Assembly: GCA_019787685.1 (NCBI GenBank)
Contig: JAHNUO010000005.1
Location: forward strand, 1,302,001-1,366,000
Source of the DNA: Chiua virens
Lineage: Eukaryota > Basidiomycota > Agaricomycetes > Boletales > Boletaceae
Length of the DNA stretch: 64,000 nt
Reading direction: 5' to 3'
The notes under the pieces were generated by a model that was not told the origin of the DNA, ran no database searches, and saw only the letters and a list, made by a program, of their open reading frames with translations. Both the position numbers and the translations under genes were made by a program. Shown in pieces: positions 37,664-56,386 of this stretch; positions within the stretch are counted from its first letter, which is position 1, and every line of letters begins with the position of its first letter.

Positions 37664-39919
37664 TCATGACTGTGACTGGATAGATTTCAGAATGTACCCC
37701 TCCAGCCCTCCGCAGACCCAGAGCTCTTGTACACTTGCGCCGACCGTGCGGACAACATACTGTTTTTCGTACCCAGGTCCCTTGACACTGACAGACCCGT
37801 CCCGCATGTTAATCTGTATCTCGTGACCCTCATTGATCGTGAGTTCGCCCTTGTTCCCCCCACCGCCGCGCTTGCCGTCCCTGGCATACGCGTTTGTGAG
37901 ATCCTTGACCAGCTCCGGACATTCGAGGCACACGAGCCCGTTGTTGATCGCATTTCGTTTGAAGATGTCGCCAAAGGAGCCTGCCACGACGACAGGGACG
38001 CCCGCCGCTTTGAGCGCGGTCGCAGCCTGTTCGCGGGACGAGCCTGTGCCAAAGTTGTACCCCGACACGAGTATGACGCCCTCCTTTGTGATGCTGTCGC
38101 CAGGCGCGGCGCGGCACTGGTTGTTTTGGTCTGCGATGAGGGCAGCCACTGTGCCTGCAAAGGTAGGATCGTAGTTCTCCATGACGACCTGCGCTTGTCG
38201 CTCGAGGGTGATGTCATCTTGGTACGTGTACTTTCCGGGGTACAGCGCATCCGTGTTCAAGTTGTCTTGAGGTGCAAAGAGCAGACGGCCTGAGAACAGC
38301 GATGGGAAGCCCTGGAAGAGGGGTTCATCGGCGGTTTGCGGCGACGGCTCGGAGGACGTCGTGGCCAATTCCGTGGGGGCGACGTAAAACGTAGGTGCAC
38401 CCGGTGGCGGTAGACGGGTGGCGTCGAGCGCGTCGGGACCGGCGATGTACCCTTTGATGGCGCTGGCAGCGACGACCGCAGGGCTTGCTAAGTACGCTTG
38501 TGCCTTGGGATGGCCCATGCGCCCCTTGTAGTTCCTGTTCGTCGCACTAATGCCCGTCTCGCCCTCCTCGAGAAGACCCGTCCCGAGACCAATGCATGGC
38601 CCGCACCCAGCTGGAAGAACCTTGGCGCCAGACGCAACGAGTGTACTCCAATACCCGAGCCGCTCGGACTCCTGTTGGACGAGGGAACTCGCGGCTGCGA
38701 TATAAAACTCGACGCCTTCCGCAACCTTGTTTCCTTCCATGACGGCTGCCGCCTCTGCAATGTCTGAAACACGCGAATTGGTGCAGCTGACGAGGTAGGC
38801 TTTCTGGATGGGTATGCGAGCTTCCTCAAGCTTGGGAAGCGGTGTAGATATCTTGACACTGTTTGGGCCGGAAACATGCGGGACGAGCGTGGAAAGGTCA
38901 AAGACGAGATGTGAGGCGTAAGCAGCACCACTGTCTGAAGTGAGGGCGCCAGCCTTGAGCGCGTCGAGACGTTGCCGGTTGATACGAGGATGTTGTGGAG
39001 GCGCAGGGATACCAGAAGTATCTGTATTAAAGGCGCGGAGTTCTACTCTCTTGAGCGTTTGTTCGTACCAGTCGAAGAGGGTCTGGTCGACAGGGAAAAC
39101 ACCAACAAGGGCACCCCATTCCGTTGTCATGTTTGCGATCGTGAGACGCTCATCGACCGAAAGAGAAGCAGCACCTTCGCCCGTGAATTCGATCGCCGCG
39201 TTCAGAACCTCGTCCTTGTTGAACGAGCCGCATAGAGCTACGATGACGTCCTTTCCCGTGACTCCAGGGGGCAATTTACCTCGGAGTTCCACCTTGACCA
39301 TCCGAGGGACCTGCCACCACGTCTTCCCGGTCGCCCAGAGTGCAGCCTGCGTCCGTACGAACGATTGGCGTACCAACGCAACCAACACCACCGTACATGT
39401 TGCTGTGACTGTCGCTGGCAACAGTAAGGGTATAGGGAAACGCATATCCTTCCTCGACGAGGACCTGATGTCCGATGCCCCGACCAGCGGGGAAGAAGTC
39501 TACATCGTGCTGGCGAGCAAATGACTCGATCGCAAAGTACTTGGCGAGGTTTTTCTCAGATTTGTTTTGGACATCATGGTCAAGAGTGAACACGAGTTGC
39601 TTGGGGTCTCTAATTTTGGTAGCGCCTATGGATTTGAACCTGCCATGGACAAGATGAGCATGAACACACCATGCTAGGGAAGGTATGCGTACTTGGAGAT
39701 GACAGGACCAGTGTTGTCGTGCGTCATGACATGTTCTGGATGAATCATGACATAGTCTCCGGCCTTGATTACTTTTCCGTTTGGGACATCAACCGCGTAC
39801 TTTTGCACGACCTTTTCAATGATGGTTTGTGGTGTGGCAGAGGCTGTCGCGAACAAACGGGCATACACGCGGGCGTAAGGTCGAGCTCGTAGCGGCGACA
39901 AACTCGAGGTGAACCGCAT
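37664..39919 (-). CDS. LYS4: Homoaconitase, mitochondrial (lysine biosynthesis)
   Basis: Converts homocitrate/homoaconitate to homoisocitrate in the fungal alpha-aminoadipate pathway; [4Fe-4S] enzyme. Two exons. An Arg/Ser-rich mitochondrial presequence ([20 protein letters not shown]) precedes [73 protein letters not shown] and [11 protein letters not shown]. Cluster ligands are in SCTNSR and GCGPCIGLG. The swivel domain has [20 protein letters not shown] and [11 protein letters not shown]. An extra G near 39346 separates IVRTDA from [11 protein letters not shown]. The 3' end converges on the Nudix gene. Confidence 0.93.
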
Positions 39920-51710: not shown

Positions 51711-53106
51711 ATGAGCAAAGAAATTCCCAACCACGGTACCTCCATCGACGACGCCCCATGTCGGGGAAAGCGGTCAGAGAGCGAGGCAAGTGGAACCATC
51801 TAGTAAATTATTGATCTTGCAATCGCCAGTCCGAAGATAATTCGATCCCCATCGCTCCTCGAAATGTGCACCGTGACGAACATCCGAACGAAGAAGCAAA
51901 CGAAGATCTTCTACAGTGTCAAACTGGCAAGAGACAACCTCACTAAGTTGTTCAAACCGACCGGTCGCGCTTCCGCGGTTGTTTCGGATGACCTTCCATC
52001 CGCGATTCTTAGTCCCTGTGTACAGGATGTTCATCCGTTTTCGGCCTCGCGAGATTCGGCCTCAAGAGTTTGCATTGTCAAGGAATCTGATTCACTTTCC
52101 TCTGGGAAAACTGGATCGGAGGCGATCGCTTCTCTTATCACGCATACTAACAGTCTTGAAACGGGGGAGCACGTCGAAAACTTCGAGCACGCGTCTCTAC
52201 AGTTGCCAACACGCCCTCCGACTGCGTTGGGCTTCCGACACAGCCATCCACACAGGTTCCCTATCAATGAGCTTTATACGATCGAAGAAGAAATCAGACT
52301 CGGAGATCCGGCGGTGGATGTTGACGTGGTACACACAGAACCAGAAGAACTTCCCGCATCCAGTTTACGCATACCCTTGACCACCAGCGACTCGCAAGCG
52401 AATTACGATGCGATGTTGGCAGCTGACGTTGCAACGTTCTCCTTTCACTCGGACGACTTTGTTGGATGGTCCGATCAGGTGGAGAAAGGGAAGCAGGGAA
52501 GGAAGGATTCTTACTTTGCATCAATGGTTTGGGCGGTTCCCGTCCCAAAATTCTCCGCCTACTTCTCCCCAGCCATCCCCTCCGAGTTCACCGCGGCTGA
52601 TCTGGAAGAATCCGTCATTAGTGAACCTTCACCCTTCAAGTCCGAGAGATCCGACACAAGCGCGTTGTCTGGAGACTCTTCAGTACCGACCAGCTTTGAC
52701 ACAGAGGAGAGTCCACGTCAAGTTTTACCTGCGATAATACCTGGGCTACGGAGAATCGGAAGCCACGAGGATCTGAGGGTTTGTTGACTTCGATGCCACT
52801 GCTGTATTCTAACCTTTTAATTTCTAGAGCTTACACTTCTTGGCAGCACTGGCGTGCAGCGATTCGCACGAGCCTGAGGATATGTCCTTGTCGTTTGATC
52901 TGAGTCCATCAAGATCGCCCGCGATCGGGGACAAGACAGGAGCGTTGCGTAAATCGGTCAGGTGCAACGACCTTCGGGTATGTTGATTCCTCCACTGCCG
53001 TCTTTGAACACTCGCTAAAGGGCTAGCTCAGAAATCGTTTGCGTCAACGGAAATCAAGATGCTTCCTTTCTTCAAATTCGGTGGTATTGAAGCGGGCATG
53101 AACTAA
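51711..53106 (+). CDS. Unidentified Ser/Asp/Glu-rich protein
   Basis: Four exons join in frame: MSKEIPNHGTSIDDAPCRGK, then a long second exon (TKIFYSVKLARDNLTKLFKP at its start, FPINELYTIEEEIRLGDPAV, NYDAMLAADVATFSFHSDDF, SYFASMVWAVPVPKFSAYFS), SLHFLAALACSDSHEPEDMS, and a final KSFASTEIKMLPFFKFGGIE. The protein is acidic and Ser-rich, without signal peptide, membrane segment or recognisable domain. The consistent splicing supports a real gene; the start could lie further upstream. Function unknown. Confidence 0.65.
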
Positions 53107-53652: not shown

Positions 53653-54901
53653 TTAATCAAGATCCACCCCACGTTTATCCTCCAATTCCACAACACTATG
53701 CAAGTCACGGCCATTCAACAGACCATGCAACGCATCCACGTAGTTCCCGCGCTTGCCTATGCCGCTCAACCCGTTGTTGTTCAACAGGTCGTGCAGCGCG
53801 TTCATATATGCCTGGCGCTTGTCCAAACCACTCAGCCCGTTGTTGTCCAACAGACCGTGGAGCGCGTTCATGTATGCCTGGCGTTTGCCCAAACCATTCA
53901 GCCCGCTGTTGTCCAACAGACCATGCAGGGCGTTCATGTACGCCTGGCGCTTGTCCAATCCGCCGTTGTCCAACAGACCGTGGAGCGCGTTCATGTATGC
54001 CTGGCGTTTGTCCAAACCATTCAGCCCGTTGTTGTCCAACAGGCCGTGGAGTGCGTTCATGTACGCCTGGCGCTTATCCAATCCGCCGTTGTCCAACAGA
54101 CCGTGGAGCGCGTTCATGTATGCCTGGCGTTTGTCCAAACCGCTCAGCCCGTTGTTGTCCAACAGGCCATGGAGCGCGTTCATGTACGCCTGGCGCTTGT
54201 CCAAACCATTCAGCCCGTTGTTGTGCAACAGACCGTGGAGCGCGTTCATGTATGCCTGGCGCTTGTCCAAACCACTCAGCCCGCTGTTGTGCAACAGACC
54301 GTGGAGCGCGTTCATGTATGCCTGGCGCTTGTCCAAACCACTCAGCCCGCTGTTGTGCAACAGACCGTGGAGCGCGTTCATGTATGCCTGGCGCTTGTCC
54401 AAACCACTCAGCCCGTTGTTGTGCAACAGACCGTGGAGCGCGTTCATATATGCCTGACGCTTGCCTAGCGGCGCGTCCTGGTACGCCTGGCGCTTGCCCA
54501 AGCCCCTGTATCTCTATGAGCATCCGTCGAAAGTGTCACATGGAGCACGTACTGAATGGCCTGGAGGAAGGCGTTGGCCTCGTCTTGAGTGATGAGGCCA
54601 TCCTGGACGGTGCCATTGATAGCGCTAGTGAGTTCAGATGCCAAATCCTCCCGTTTGCATGCACCGGTCTCGGAGCAAAATCCAGGAATGATAACAGGTC
54701 CGATCCCGTAGCTGGGCGGCGACCTCTCGTCCACGGACGTGGTCGTTGCTGAGAAGAGCTCGGCTGTGTCACTGTCGGGCGTCAGCATCTCATGGTCTGG
54801 TCTGGTTATTCGCCGATGACTCACTGAGGAGAGGGACTGGCCATGACCGGGGCAACGGCGGCGGCGATGAAAGCTGCGGAGAGTACTGCACGGGAACGCA
54901 T
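53653..54901 (-). CDS. Secreted Kex2-processed repeat-peptide precursor (KEP type)
   Basis: Three exons give a precursor of about 380 residues. A signal peptide (MRSRAVLSAAFIAAAVAPVM then ASPSP) is followed by a leader of about 75 residues containing PGFCSETGACKREDLASELT and DGLITQDEANAFLQAI. The last intron (donor GTACGT) joins the leader to GLGKR and then to thirteen peptides each ended by Lys-Arg. Twelve begin Gln-Ala-Tyr; ten of these share QAYMNALHGLL followed by a Gly/Asn/Leu tail ending in Asp or Gly, and a last variant starts GNYVDALHGLL. The tail GVDLD follows the final KR. Kex2 cleavage after each KR, trimming by a Kex1-type carboxypeptidase and N-terminal Gln cyclisation would give short secreted peptides of 17-20 residues. 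No maturation enzyme gene is visible nearby. The function is unknown. Confidence 0.9.
53671..54489 (-). repeat. Tandem peptide-coding array, 66- and 57-bp units
   Basis: Units are 22 codons (66 bp) with two 19-codon (57 bp) versions that lack three codons of the Asn-Gly-Leu-Ser tail. In translation order the first unit is short (QAYQDAPLG), units 2-5 read LLHN, units 6-11 read LLDN, unit 12 is degenerate (LHDLLNNN), and unit 13 is the GNY variant. Near-identity at DNA level, blockwise His/Asp difference and preserved frame indicate recent unit duplication or gene conversion under selection for the coding frame. Confidence 0.9.
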
Positions 54902-56386
54902 CTTGAAGAGTGGTTGTAGAAACAGAGAAAGTTGATTAACGAGAGAGTGGTGGGCCGTTCAACGGGAAGCTGATGGTAGTTGAAGAATACAGAAAAGGCT
55001 AATGGTGAGGGGATTAGAGGAGGTCAAACACTATGAAAAGGAATCGACTCACTAGCCAGTACCTGAGCTCGAATGAATGGAAGAAAGCTAGCGAAACAGG
55101 AGAAAAGGGATGGTATTTATACGCTGCGAGGGGTGTGTCGGACCGACAAGACCTAATCAGTGTGAATCTTGCGGTTTTCGTAGAAGCTATGCGTCTGAAC
55201 CGTGAGCATGATTGTTGATGGCCCAATATGTTGCCAGGAGTAATTTCCACAGGGGTCAGCATAGTTCGTTCCCTCGATGCATTCTCGGAGTTACCGGATG
55301 TTTAGGGAATGGATGTGTGAGAACCATCAGCAAGTTACTCCTGTTCAAAGCCGAACTTGATGGTGGCTTGGTTCACGGGAAATTCCTGCAAACAGTACGG
55401 TGTAGGGACCCGAGACGCGTCGGGCATGACGCGTCAAGTTTGCCCAAACTTGCTTCCCCTTGACCATACTAGTAGTTGGCCATCACATGGTGACACGGCT
55501 CGTTGGCACATCCTATCAGACTGGCTGGAACCGACGTCTCATTCCAGTCTCGATTCGGGTCATTTAGTCGTGACAAAGTCGTAGCGAGAATTCGTGTATA
55601 CTTCGGACTCGGATCCTTTATGGGATTAACTGAAAGGAAAACCGTTGCTGACAGATGGCTCGGGGCAGGGCAATGATGTTACTTACAGTTATCGCCTTCC
55701 GAGATTAAGTCATGGTTCGACTTGAGTGATGGTCATCGTCCGTAGTTACAGCGGGAGCACTGCCAACACGCCACTCCAAGGCAGCCTGAGAGACATCAAA
55801 ATTAATATTGATAATGATCCAGATTGTTACAACGTTGCAATTTTTCCACACGCATGTCTGAACGCAGCGGAAGATATCTTCGGTCCATCGTGCATTGGCA
55901 TGCGACCGGTCTGCTGAAAACCTTATTTCATCAAAATCATGCGTCGATCAGTCAAAGAGCTTATACTCCGAATATACCCGCCGTTGATCGACGCAATGCA
56001 ACTACCTTCGTAAGTATGTTTCTCTCAAAGTTGTTCCTTACCACCAGATCCGGTGTCCTCGTGGGGGTAAGCGGAGTCGTCTGGATGACGCTCTCATCAG
56101 CCGTCGTCCACTAGGGTCTCTGGGCATTGCGGTTTCGACTTTGCTACCCATGGGTCTCGCTAGTCCCTGCGGCTGTCGGATCGCCCGCGTTGTATTCCAG
56201 CCCGCCTTTCGGTTTCTGCAATTTCTCTAGCTCTCTCGGCTCTTTACGGTGCGCCGTGCATGCAGGTGGCACTCCTGGCTGTTCATAGTAGTGATACAAA
56301 CTAGTAGCTTGTATTGTATATTTCTGAAGACGTTAAGATATTATTTCCGTCCATCACATATATACAACATACATAAAACCTTTGGA
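54902..56386. other. Long intergenic region upstream of the repeat-peptide gene
   Basis: About 1.5 kb with no conserved reading frame; the largest gene-free stretch outside 1-4383. The proximal part is the promoter of the repeat-peptide gene; the distal part lies 3' of SDE2. I saw no tRNA, repeat or mobile-element signature. Confidence 0.5.
55114..55121 (-). promoter_or_regulatory. TATA box of the repeat-peptide gene
   Basis: TATAAATA on the minus strand, about 213 nt upstream of the start codon, the clearest TATA box near any gene in the window. Between it and the ATG a possible 5'-leader intron starts GTGAGTCG and ends CCATTAG (about 54 nt). A TATA promoter would fit an inducible, highly expressed gene. 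Confidence 0.55.

What the first reader, a model, noticed from the sequence alone, without database searches (positions are those of the whole stretch)
53653..54901. Repeat-peptide precursor predicted to release about thirteen secreted peptides
A signal peptide and leader precede thirteen Lys-Arg-delimited peptides, twelve starting Gln-Ala-Tyr and ten nearly identical. This is the architecture of Kex2-processed repeat proteins (yeast alpha-factor logic, Ustilago Rep1, dikaritin-type RiPP precursors). The core sequence is not one I recognise. N-terminal Gln after cleavage predicts pyroglutamate ends, and the QAYMNALHGLL part is amphipathic-helix-like. Possible roles are a surface-active wall peptide, a self-signalling peptide or a modified RiPP.
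Basis: partly seen in the sequence, partly recalled or inferred. Interest (0 to 1): 0.88.

Follow-up and report, generated by a model that had tools for sequence, protein, structure and literature searches.

The report
Bolete gene for eleven-copy secreted peptide
A gene in a bolete mushroom encodes a secreted precursor that the cell would be expected to cut into eleven near-identical small peptides, and it belongs to a gene family in the same genome that shares one delivery end but carries several quite different peptide payloads.

Summary
On the minus strand (54901-53653) two short introns give a 382-aa precursor: signal-peptide-like start, leader, then 13 KR-bounded peptides, 12 starting QAY and 11 QAYMN. 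The window is from Chiua virens, a bolete. The dikaritin/RiPP option is not supported: nearest UstYa match found 177 kb away.

What is new lies outside the window. The genome holds 11-12 related loci. Eight keep a common upstream/5'UTR/signal-peptide cassette; in the six compared, upstream identity is 46-68% (shuffled mean 26%), but cargo falls into five types averaging 11.5% identity (shuffled 9.5%), joined at most by a nine-residue motif. In two types each repeat unit is one phase-2 exon. Of 7997 database candidates scored, only two matched, both Chiua virens. One copy is a CpG-decayed pseudogene.

Best reading: linear, probably N-pyroglutamyl, partly helical peptides secreted at high dose to act outside the cell; expression, processing and role are inferred. 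New variant of a known kind.

The parts
55114..55121 (-). TATA-like box (TATAAATA), about 220 nt before the ATG
   Evidence: A TATA-like string at -214 to -237 in 7 of 8 cassette members scanned; L005 has TTTAAATA instead (alignment of five)
55046..55063 (-). 18-nt conserved 5'UTR motif GGTACTGGCTAGTGAGTC holding an intron donor
   Evidence: 9 places in the genome at up to 1 mismatch, reversed control 0; alignment
54999..55052 (-). Inferred 5'UTR intron, 54 nt (GTGAGT..TTAG)
   Evidence: Read by eye from the sequence and the upstream alignment; not verified by RNA
54825..54901 (-). Exon 1: start codon and signal-peptide-like stretch (MRSRAVLSAAFIAAAVAPVMA-SPSP)
   Evidence: 11-residue hydropathy peak 2.5 at residues 6-16; similar exons at 7 places of the genome, this one included
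54772..54824 (-). Intron 1, 53 nt, GTGAGT..GACAG, phase 2
   Evidence: same position and phase in L005 and in the models of L032, L034, L035
54553..54771 (-). Exon 2: leader (PSYGIGPVIIPGFCSETGACKR / EDLASELTSAINGTVQDGLITQDEANAFLQAIQ), recognisable in cargo types A-D
   Evidence: two helices predicted at low confidence, mean pLDDT 61.6
54506..54552 (-). Intron 2, 47 nt, GTACGT..TACAG, phase 2, alignable with the intron of L005, L006, L032, L034, L035
53653..54505 (-). Exon 3: repeat array and stop
53671..54489 (-). 13 KR-bounded peptides: QAYQDAPLG, 11 x QAYMNALH..., GNYVDALHGLLNGRDLHSVVELED
53656..53670 (-). C-terminal tail GVDLD

Best explanation
The gene encodes a Kex2-processed repeat protein (KEP) of the bolete Chiua virens. 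The signal peptide sends the 382-aa precursor into the secretory pathway; a kexin cuts after each Lys-Arg, a Kex1-type carboxypeptidase trims the basic pair, and one chain yields 11 near-identical 17-20-residue peptides (such as QAYMNALHGLLDNNGLSGLD). Their N-terminal Gln most likely closes to pyroglutamate and their first half folds as an amphipathic helix on contact with a partner or surface. They stay linear and act outside the cell, most likely in contact with other organisms (plant root, microbes) and next most likely at the hyphal surface. The gene is one of a family that keeps a common upstream/5'UTR/signal-peptide cassette while the cargo diverges. Shown: gene anatomy by sequence, family, constraint. 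Inferred: expression, secretion, cleavage, pyroGlu, helix, role.
For: Anatomy and repeat statistics. Constraint between units (pN/pS 0.18) and between paralogue cores (window-L005 dN 0.104, dS 0.515; window-L006 0.328, 1.696; 15 codons each). Paralogues with the same KR-QxYM spacing on C4 and C18; two family members annotated independently with the same leader splicing. A kexin P-domain exon and a DPPIV_N locus in the genome. Shared cassette and leader. No UstYa match within 177 kb of any family locus. Precedent: linear pyro-Q KEP peptides measured in Coprinopsis (PMC9769878).
Against: No transcript or peptide data. Signal peptide judged by hydropathy only. AF2 model of two units has mean pLDDT 66.6; the whole core is not significantly amphipathic. 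PF05096 glutaminyl cyclase not found. QA could be a Ste13 dipeptide, whose removal would take the Gln away. Six kep knockouts in Coprinopsis showed no phenotype and synthetic peptides no antibacterial activity (PMC9769878), so the role may be slight. No relative outside Chiua virens was found among the candidates scored.
Confidence: 0.7

Rival explanations
1. Surface-active wall peptides that work like Ustilago Rep1 repellents: released peptides assemble on the hyphal surface and make it attach or repel water.
For: Eleven near-identical copies per chain suggest bulk use; Rep1 has 12 amphipathic Kex2-separated repeats forming fibrils (PMC4617103, passages). First half of the core amphipathic, P=0.004.
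Against: Cores of 17-20 aa are about half the size of Rep1 peptides (35-53 aa); relatives with 2 copies (L005, L006) do not suggest bulk; the full core is not amphipathic. No sequence comparison with Rep1 was made.
Confidence: 0.22
2. A self-signalling peptide with alpha-factor logic: Kex2, Kex1 and Ste13 trim QA, leaving YMNALHGLL..., sensed by a receptor of the fungus itself.
For: QA fits the XA Ste13 signature in 12 of 13 KR-bounded peptides of the window gene and 2 of 2 cores of L005; a DPPIV_N locus is present, not resolved to Ste13; Le Marquer et al. report basidiomycete KEPs with Ste13 signatures (PMC6339444, sections).
Against: Only one dipeptide, not a series; in L006 it is QE, not XA, while Q1 stays; basidiomycete mating pheromones are of a-type (PMC9769878 introduction); the cargo of sister genes is unlike, which is odd for one receptor.
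Confidence: 0.2
3. A dikaritin-type RiPP: the tyrosine of each core is cyclised by UstYa-like oxidases.
For: Precursor architecture is the same; each QAYMN core holds a Tyr; the genome has 18 UstYa exon matches elsewhere, so action from a distance is not excluded.
Against: 0 of 12 family loci have a UstYa match on their contig nearer than 177 kb (against 26), while Umemura gives a mean distance of 3.09 genes where they are paired (PMC7329392 abstract); 7 of the 20 window frames searched had Pfam families, all of housekeeping kinds.
Confidence: 0.07
4. Not a working peptide source: the repeats are a by-product of tandem slippage, or the gene is silent.
For: A sister copy (L007) is a decayed pseudogene and another (L033) lacks its start; no database protein for this gene was found.
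Against: Open through all its KR sites, third-position bias and pN/pS 0.18, constrained leader (dN/dS about 0.14-0.29 between three members, 44 codons).
Confidence: 0.08

Closest known systems
Kex2-processed repeat proteins (KEPs; Le Marquer 2019, Umemura 2020, Vogt 2022)
   Same: Signal-peptide-like start, leader, many near-identical peptides bounded by KR; 9-24 aa size class; N-terminal Gln cores as in Coprinopsis KEP 497993
   Different: Core and leader matched nothing outside Chiua virens among the candidates scored; the family shares an upstream/5'UTR/signal cassette with unlike cargo; some members have one repeat unit per exon
Ustilago maydis Rep1 repellents
   Same: Tandem Kex2-bounded peptides with amphipathic character
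   Different: Shorter cores; sequences not compared; no evidence of fibrils
Ascomycete alpha-factor precursors
   Same: KR-bounded near-identical peptides; XA dipeptide after KR
   Different: No repeated XA/XP series; Q1 rather than A2 is kept in L006; basidiomycete
Dikaritins (ustiloxin, phomopsin, asperipin)
   Same: Precursor architecture, Tyr in core
   Different: No UstYa match nearby; core longer (core length of dikaritins recalled)
MiSSP8 of Laccaria bicolor (ectomycorrhizal effector with Kex2 sites)
   Same: Secreted Kex2-site protein of an agaricomycete
   Different: Known here only from a passage of PMC7329392 (species name recalled); sequence not compared

Membership tests
KEP | N-terminal signal peptide, no other membrane span | tested here: inconclusive
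   Hydropathy peak 2.5 (11-residue windows, residues 6-16) with a VMA-S end, similar N terminus in two annotated paralogues; SignalP and TMHMM not available
KEP | At least four fragments on KR/RR cleavage, at least three alike | tested here: met
   15 dibasic sites after residue 22, 11 similar fragments
KEP | Repeats make up at least 15% of the protein | tested here: met
   56% in QAYMN cores without KR; threshold read in PMC6339444
KEP | Cleavage in vivo by kexin | not testable with these tools
   Only one kexin P-domain exon shown in the genome
Dikaritin RiPP | UstYa/DUF3328 gene next to the precursor | tested here: not met
   18 UstYa matches in the genome (a lower bound), nearest 177 kb away on C5, none on the other seven contigs of the family
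Dikaritin RiPP | Cyclised, modified core | not testable with these tools
   Needs mass spectrometry
Alpha-factor-type precursor | Series of XA/XP dipeptides after KR | tested here: not met
   A single QA, replaced by QE in L006
Rep1-type repellent | Amphipathic repeats forming surface-active fibrils | tested here: inconclusive
   Only the first 11 residues amphipathic (P=0.004), whole core not (P=0.38); fibrils not testable

The most novel reading that the evidence does not exclude
Chiua virens carries a secreted-peptide arsenal built like animal venom gene families (comparison recalled): one fixed delivery cassette (upstream region, 5'UTR intron, signal peptide, often the leader) in front of fast-diversifying, Kex2-released cargo, spread by gene duplication and by duplication of phase-2 exons that each encode one unit, the cargo types descending from one ancestral amphipathic nine-residue motif. 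The window gene is the member whose cargo was amplified to eleven copies.
Probability: 0.35. Interest if true: 0.75.

Novelty: new variant of a known kind. Interest (0 to 1): 0.5.

Why it matters
KEPs are widespread in fungi but most encode peptides of unknown function (PMC9769878), and how their cargo arises is little known. Here one genome shows several stages side by side: a conserved delivery end, five cargo types, one-unit exons, a tandem array of eleven beside relatives with two, and dead copies. If the peptides are found, this gives a testable system for how fungi invent secreted peptides, and new short peptides from a bolete whose relatives are mostly ectomycorrhizal (recalled).

Tried and rejected
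Protein search with the whole precursor: none of 7993 scored candidates at E<=0.001. Profile search with five family members: 2 of 7997 candidates at E<=1, both Chiua virens; both searches score only proteins that share words and are 0.55-1.75 times the query length. Rfam and tRNA scans of the window: nothing. Pfam on the precursor: Gag_p10 (E 2.2e-7) and CBF (E 3.7e-6) exceed their whole-protein cut-offs, but no single stretch passes even E<=1, so I judge them sums over repeats; paralogue P0121 passes the DUF4168 cut-off (E 5.5e-7, two stretches), the window protein shows no DUF4168; not used. Cationic antimicrobial peptide: put aside because the trimmed QAYMN cores of the window have no Lys or Arg (read). 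Paper searches: core strings 0, Boletales with Kex2 0, KEP/leader/exon 0, conserved signal peptide 0, hypervariable 2 (one opened for passages, the other not opened). Common neighbours of the family loci: only duplicated-block and repeat-like matches, not followed. The first L034 leader splice used was replaced by the annotated one, so alignment A1 is superseded by A5. In one search one L006 unit was out of register; one search has the corrected figures. My splice script gave other 3' ends for L005 and the window gene than I adopt. Without type E the nine-residue motif is not significant.

Full report
WHAT IS THERE. The finding is real. The gene lies on the minus strand, ATG at 54901, stop ending at 53653. 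Frame analysis with splice-site search gives two introns, 54824-54772 (53 nt, GTGAGT..GACAG) and 54552-54506 (47 nt, GTACGT..TACAG), and a 382-aa product; other open splice combinations exist, and this one was chosen for its sites and its agreement with the paralogues. Cutting after each KR yields a signal+leader piece ending ACKR, a 38-aa second leader piece, then QAYQDAPLG-KR, eleven units starting QAYMN (nine of 22 aa and two of 19 aa with KR), one GNYVDALHGLLNGRDLHSVVELED-KR, and GVDLD. TRF finds 10.9 copies of 66 bp, score 1020. It is the only frame of at least 80 aa in the window with two or more similar dibasic-bounded fragments; 60 simulated windows (first-order Markov) gave none. Long plus-strand frames over the array (256 and 314 aa) are its mirror image; among the nine full-length units differences fall 40/58/141 on codon positions 1/2/3 of the minus frame over 36 pairs and pN/pS is 0.18. 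Tandem units evolve in concert, so this ratio describes constraint only roughly.

WHERE IT IS FROM. A homoaconitase frame in the window (37667-39499, -) is 100% identical over 90% to JVU11DRAFT_4265 of Chiua virens, on a contig of 2,399,986 bases, the exact length of contig C5 that holds the window. Chiua virens is a Boletaceae. That boletes of this kind are ectomycorrhizal is recalled, not tested. Of 62 stop-to-stop frames of at least 150 aa I searched 20 against Pfam; 7 matched: homoaconitase, class I tRNA synthetase (two frames), SDE2, ketol-acid reductoisomerase, PI3/PI4 kinase (two frames): housekeeping neighbours, no sign of a peptide cluster. Some genes of the window will have been missed by this.

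THE FAMILY. A search of the own genome with the repeat protein gave three more loci, the leader five more besides (it also found the C11 locus, and C18 at E 0.07, and missed C4:792k), and an 18-nt 5'UTR motif three more. Loci: C5 window; C4:792k (L005, two QAYM units, annotated as JVU11DRAFT_3240); C18:244k (L006, two QEYM units, leader, no signal peptide found by me and no cassette motif); C11:538k (L007, pseudogene); C12:231k (L032); C12:238k (L033, start lost); C4:882k (L034, annotated as JVU11DRAFT_3266); C49:92k and C15:576k (L035, L036; inside a 9.7-kb block present twice at 95.6% identity); C34:134k and C4:10k (L050, L051; 97.4% identical over 5.0 kb); and C4:923k (L052: motif with one mismatch, dibasic units, no family signal peptide, doubtful). 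Counts are lower bounds, as the tool says.

Cargo types: A, QAYMNALHGLLDNNGLSGLD-KR (window 11 units, L005 2, L006 2 as QEYM, L007 remnants of about 2 plus the same GNYV-type end, read by eye). B, RRR-IGTGTVLNGLFDSVSTAASLADFFGGSHKGSNA, three copies, each in its own exon that opens with the basic site; three further exons of that gene also open with RR. C, RKSAGEILGSVFGTLANAFATLDGQA-KR-GLSEASENIVA, three copies (the last cut short), each unit one exon; here the KR lies inside the exon, so a released peptide would span two exons. D, SSKTAVASAVFGGIGSLSTLANVIISNL, followed by HQNKGNKR; leader and core are duplicated as a module in L034. E, SWTPAPTFDHGPETPPDYHKLAAVFGALNGRGFIDPDLDE and variants. In the three models L032, L034 and L035 all 25 junctions are phase 2 (9, 7 and 9), as are both coding introns of the window gene, so exons can be copied without breaking the frame; the junctions were picked by my script, which does not fix the phase, and copies are not independent. 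The first B exon depends on the acceptor chosen, and the downstream ends of L032, L034, L035, L050 and L051 are uncertain. Of four models scanned for similar KR/RR-bounded internal fragments the window gene has 11, L032 3, L035 2 and L005 1, so by the Le Marquer rule of three alike only the first two would be called KEPs.

CASSETTE CONSTANT, CARGO VARIABLE. Eight loci have the motif and a family signal peptide (window, L005, L032, L034, L035, L036, L050, L051). I compared six of them, leaving out the near-duplicates L036 and L051: 260 nt before the ATG are 46-68% identical (mean 54.7; shuffled mean 26.4, maximum 30.9 in 20 trials), the first 25 residues 32-76% (aligned without gaps, so an underestimate for L032 and L034), while one chosen core per locus averages 11.5% between types (shuffled 9.5) and 77% within type A. 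The motif GGTACTGGCTAGTRAGTC occurs 9 times in 48.3 Mb at up to one mismatch, 0 times in the reversed control; 8 of the 9 precede a family signal peptide (the signal search itself returned 7 places and missed L034). The leader exon is recognisable in A-D, not in E. The upstream alignment includes a TATA-like box and a probable 5'UTR intron. Leader dN/dS is 0.14-0.29 between window, L032 and L034 over 44 codons (window-L032 0.206/1.028). Are the cargo types related at all? A gap-free nine-residue block, YMNALHGLL / VLNGLFDSV / ILGSVFGTL / VASAVFGGI / KLAAVFGAL, scored 134; 1 of 1000 composition shuffles reached that. Leaving out one type gave 1, 0, 10, 5 and 54 of 500 (without A, B, C, D, E), and of the ten pairs only D-E (2 of 500) and C-E (8 of 500) stand out, A-B being next (19 of 500); the block length was chosen after I had seen the alignment. 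I treat common descent of the cores as a hint.

HOW IT PROBABLY WORKS. Signal peptide, kexin cuts after KR, Kex1-type trimming of KR, release of 11 near-identical peptides per chain. A kexin P-domain exon and one DPPIV_N locus are in the genome; the PF05096 type of glutaminyl cyclase was not found; other cyclase types were not searched. Gln 1 is kept in L006 where position 2 is Glu, which favours pyroglutamate over Ste13 removal of QA. In Coprinopsis, KEP peptides with N-terminal Gln were found as pyro-Gln forms in culture fluid, mycelium or caps (PMC9769878: introduction, two of three parts of the results, and discussion read). AF2 of two units predicts helices at 2-13 and 19-35 with mean pLDDT 66.6. 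Of ten segments that I chose for the hydrophobic moment, QAYMNALHGLL has P=0.004, its 14-mer 0.046 and the whole 20-mer 0.38; L005 and L006 cores 0.36 and 0.18; type B 0.28 (long) and 0.075 (short); C 0.0015 and 0.0002; D 0.013 (uncorrected). The trimmed QAYMN cores have no Lys or Arg, so a classical cationic antimicrobial is unlikely. The role is a guess: contact with other organisms first (as Vogt et al. argue after six knockouts without phenotype; MiSSP8 has Kex2 sites and matters for mycorrhiza according to a passage of PMC7329392), hyphal surface second (Rep1, passages of PMC4617103), self-signal third, cyclic RiPP last.

THE RIPP OPTION. UstYa (PF11807) gives 18 exon matches in the genome, one on C5 at 177 kb from the gene, and none on C4, C11, C12, C15, C18, C34 or C49. 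Umemura found UstYa genes beside 22% of KEPs, at a mean of 3.09 genes (abstract), so their absence is common among KEPs.

DEAD COPIES. L007 aligns with the window gene at 72.8% over 674 columns; 30 of 41 CpG of the window gene became TG/CA, 3 were kept, and none changed the other way; the 8 kb around it have CpG observed/expected 0.133 against 0.976 in the window. L033 shares 645 bp at 87% with L032 but lacks its start. So the family shows birth and death within one genome.

NOVELTY. KEPs, lineage-specific KEP expansions (Umemura reports 20 of one type in one Peniophora strain) and pyro-Gln KEP peptides are known. No held paper text has the core strings or joins Boletales with Kex2, repeat and peptides; the library lacks most subscription journals. 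A fixed cassette with unlike KEP cargo was not met in the sections and passages I read (PMC9769878, PMC7329392, PMC6339444, PMC4617103) or in three text searches (one of the two papers was not opened). Hence: new variant of a known kind.

Noticed in passing
L007 (G000:C11:534500-542500): Strongly CpG-depleted stretch (o/e 0.133 versus 0.976 in the window) holding a dead copy of the gene: a mark of methylation-type or RIP-like decay in this bolete
   Followed up: partly
L035/L036 with L037-L040 (C49:91.4-101.1k, C15:567.2-576.8k): 9.7-kb block present twice at 95.6% identity, each with a type B peptide gene; segmental duplication or differing haplotypes
   Followed up: partly
L050 (C34:134k) and L051 (C4:10k): Two type E genes (DHGPE..PPD repeats) with the same cassette, 97.4% identical over 5.0 kb, one of them 10 kb from a contig end
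   Followed up: partly
L052 (C4:922.9k): Cassette motif with one mismatch before dibasic units (RRDWLGNYLHAISELV..) but no family signal peptide: a decayed member or a false match
   Followed up: partly
L005:659-1309 and L034:1-658, also L005:7752-8001: Repeat-like blocks shared by the flanks of two family loci (84% over 658 bp), perhaps a mobile element
   Followed up: no
P0121 (JVU11DRAFT_3266), residues 156-204: The leader module of the annotated paralogue passes the Pfam DUF4168 cut-off in two stretches, while the window protein does not list it
   Followed up: no
window 51807-52784 (+): 326-aa open frame next to the gene without any Pfam match
   Followed up: no
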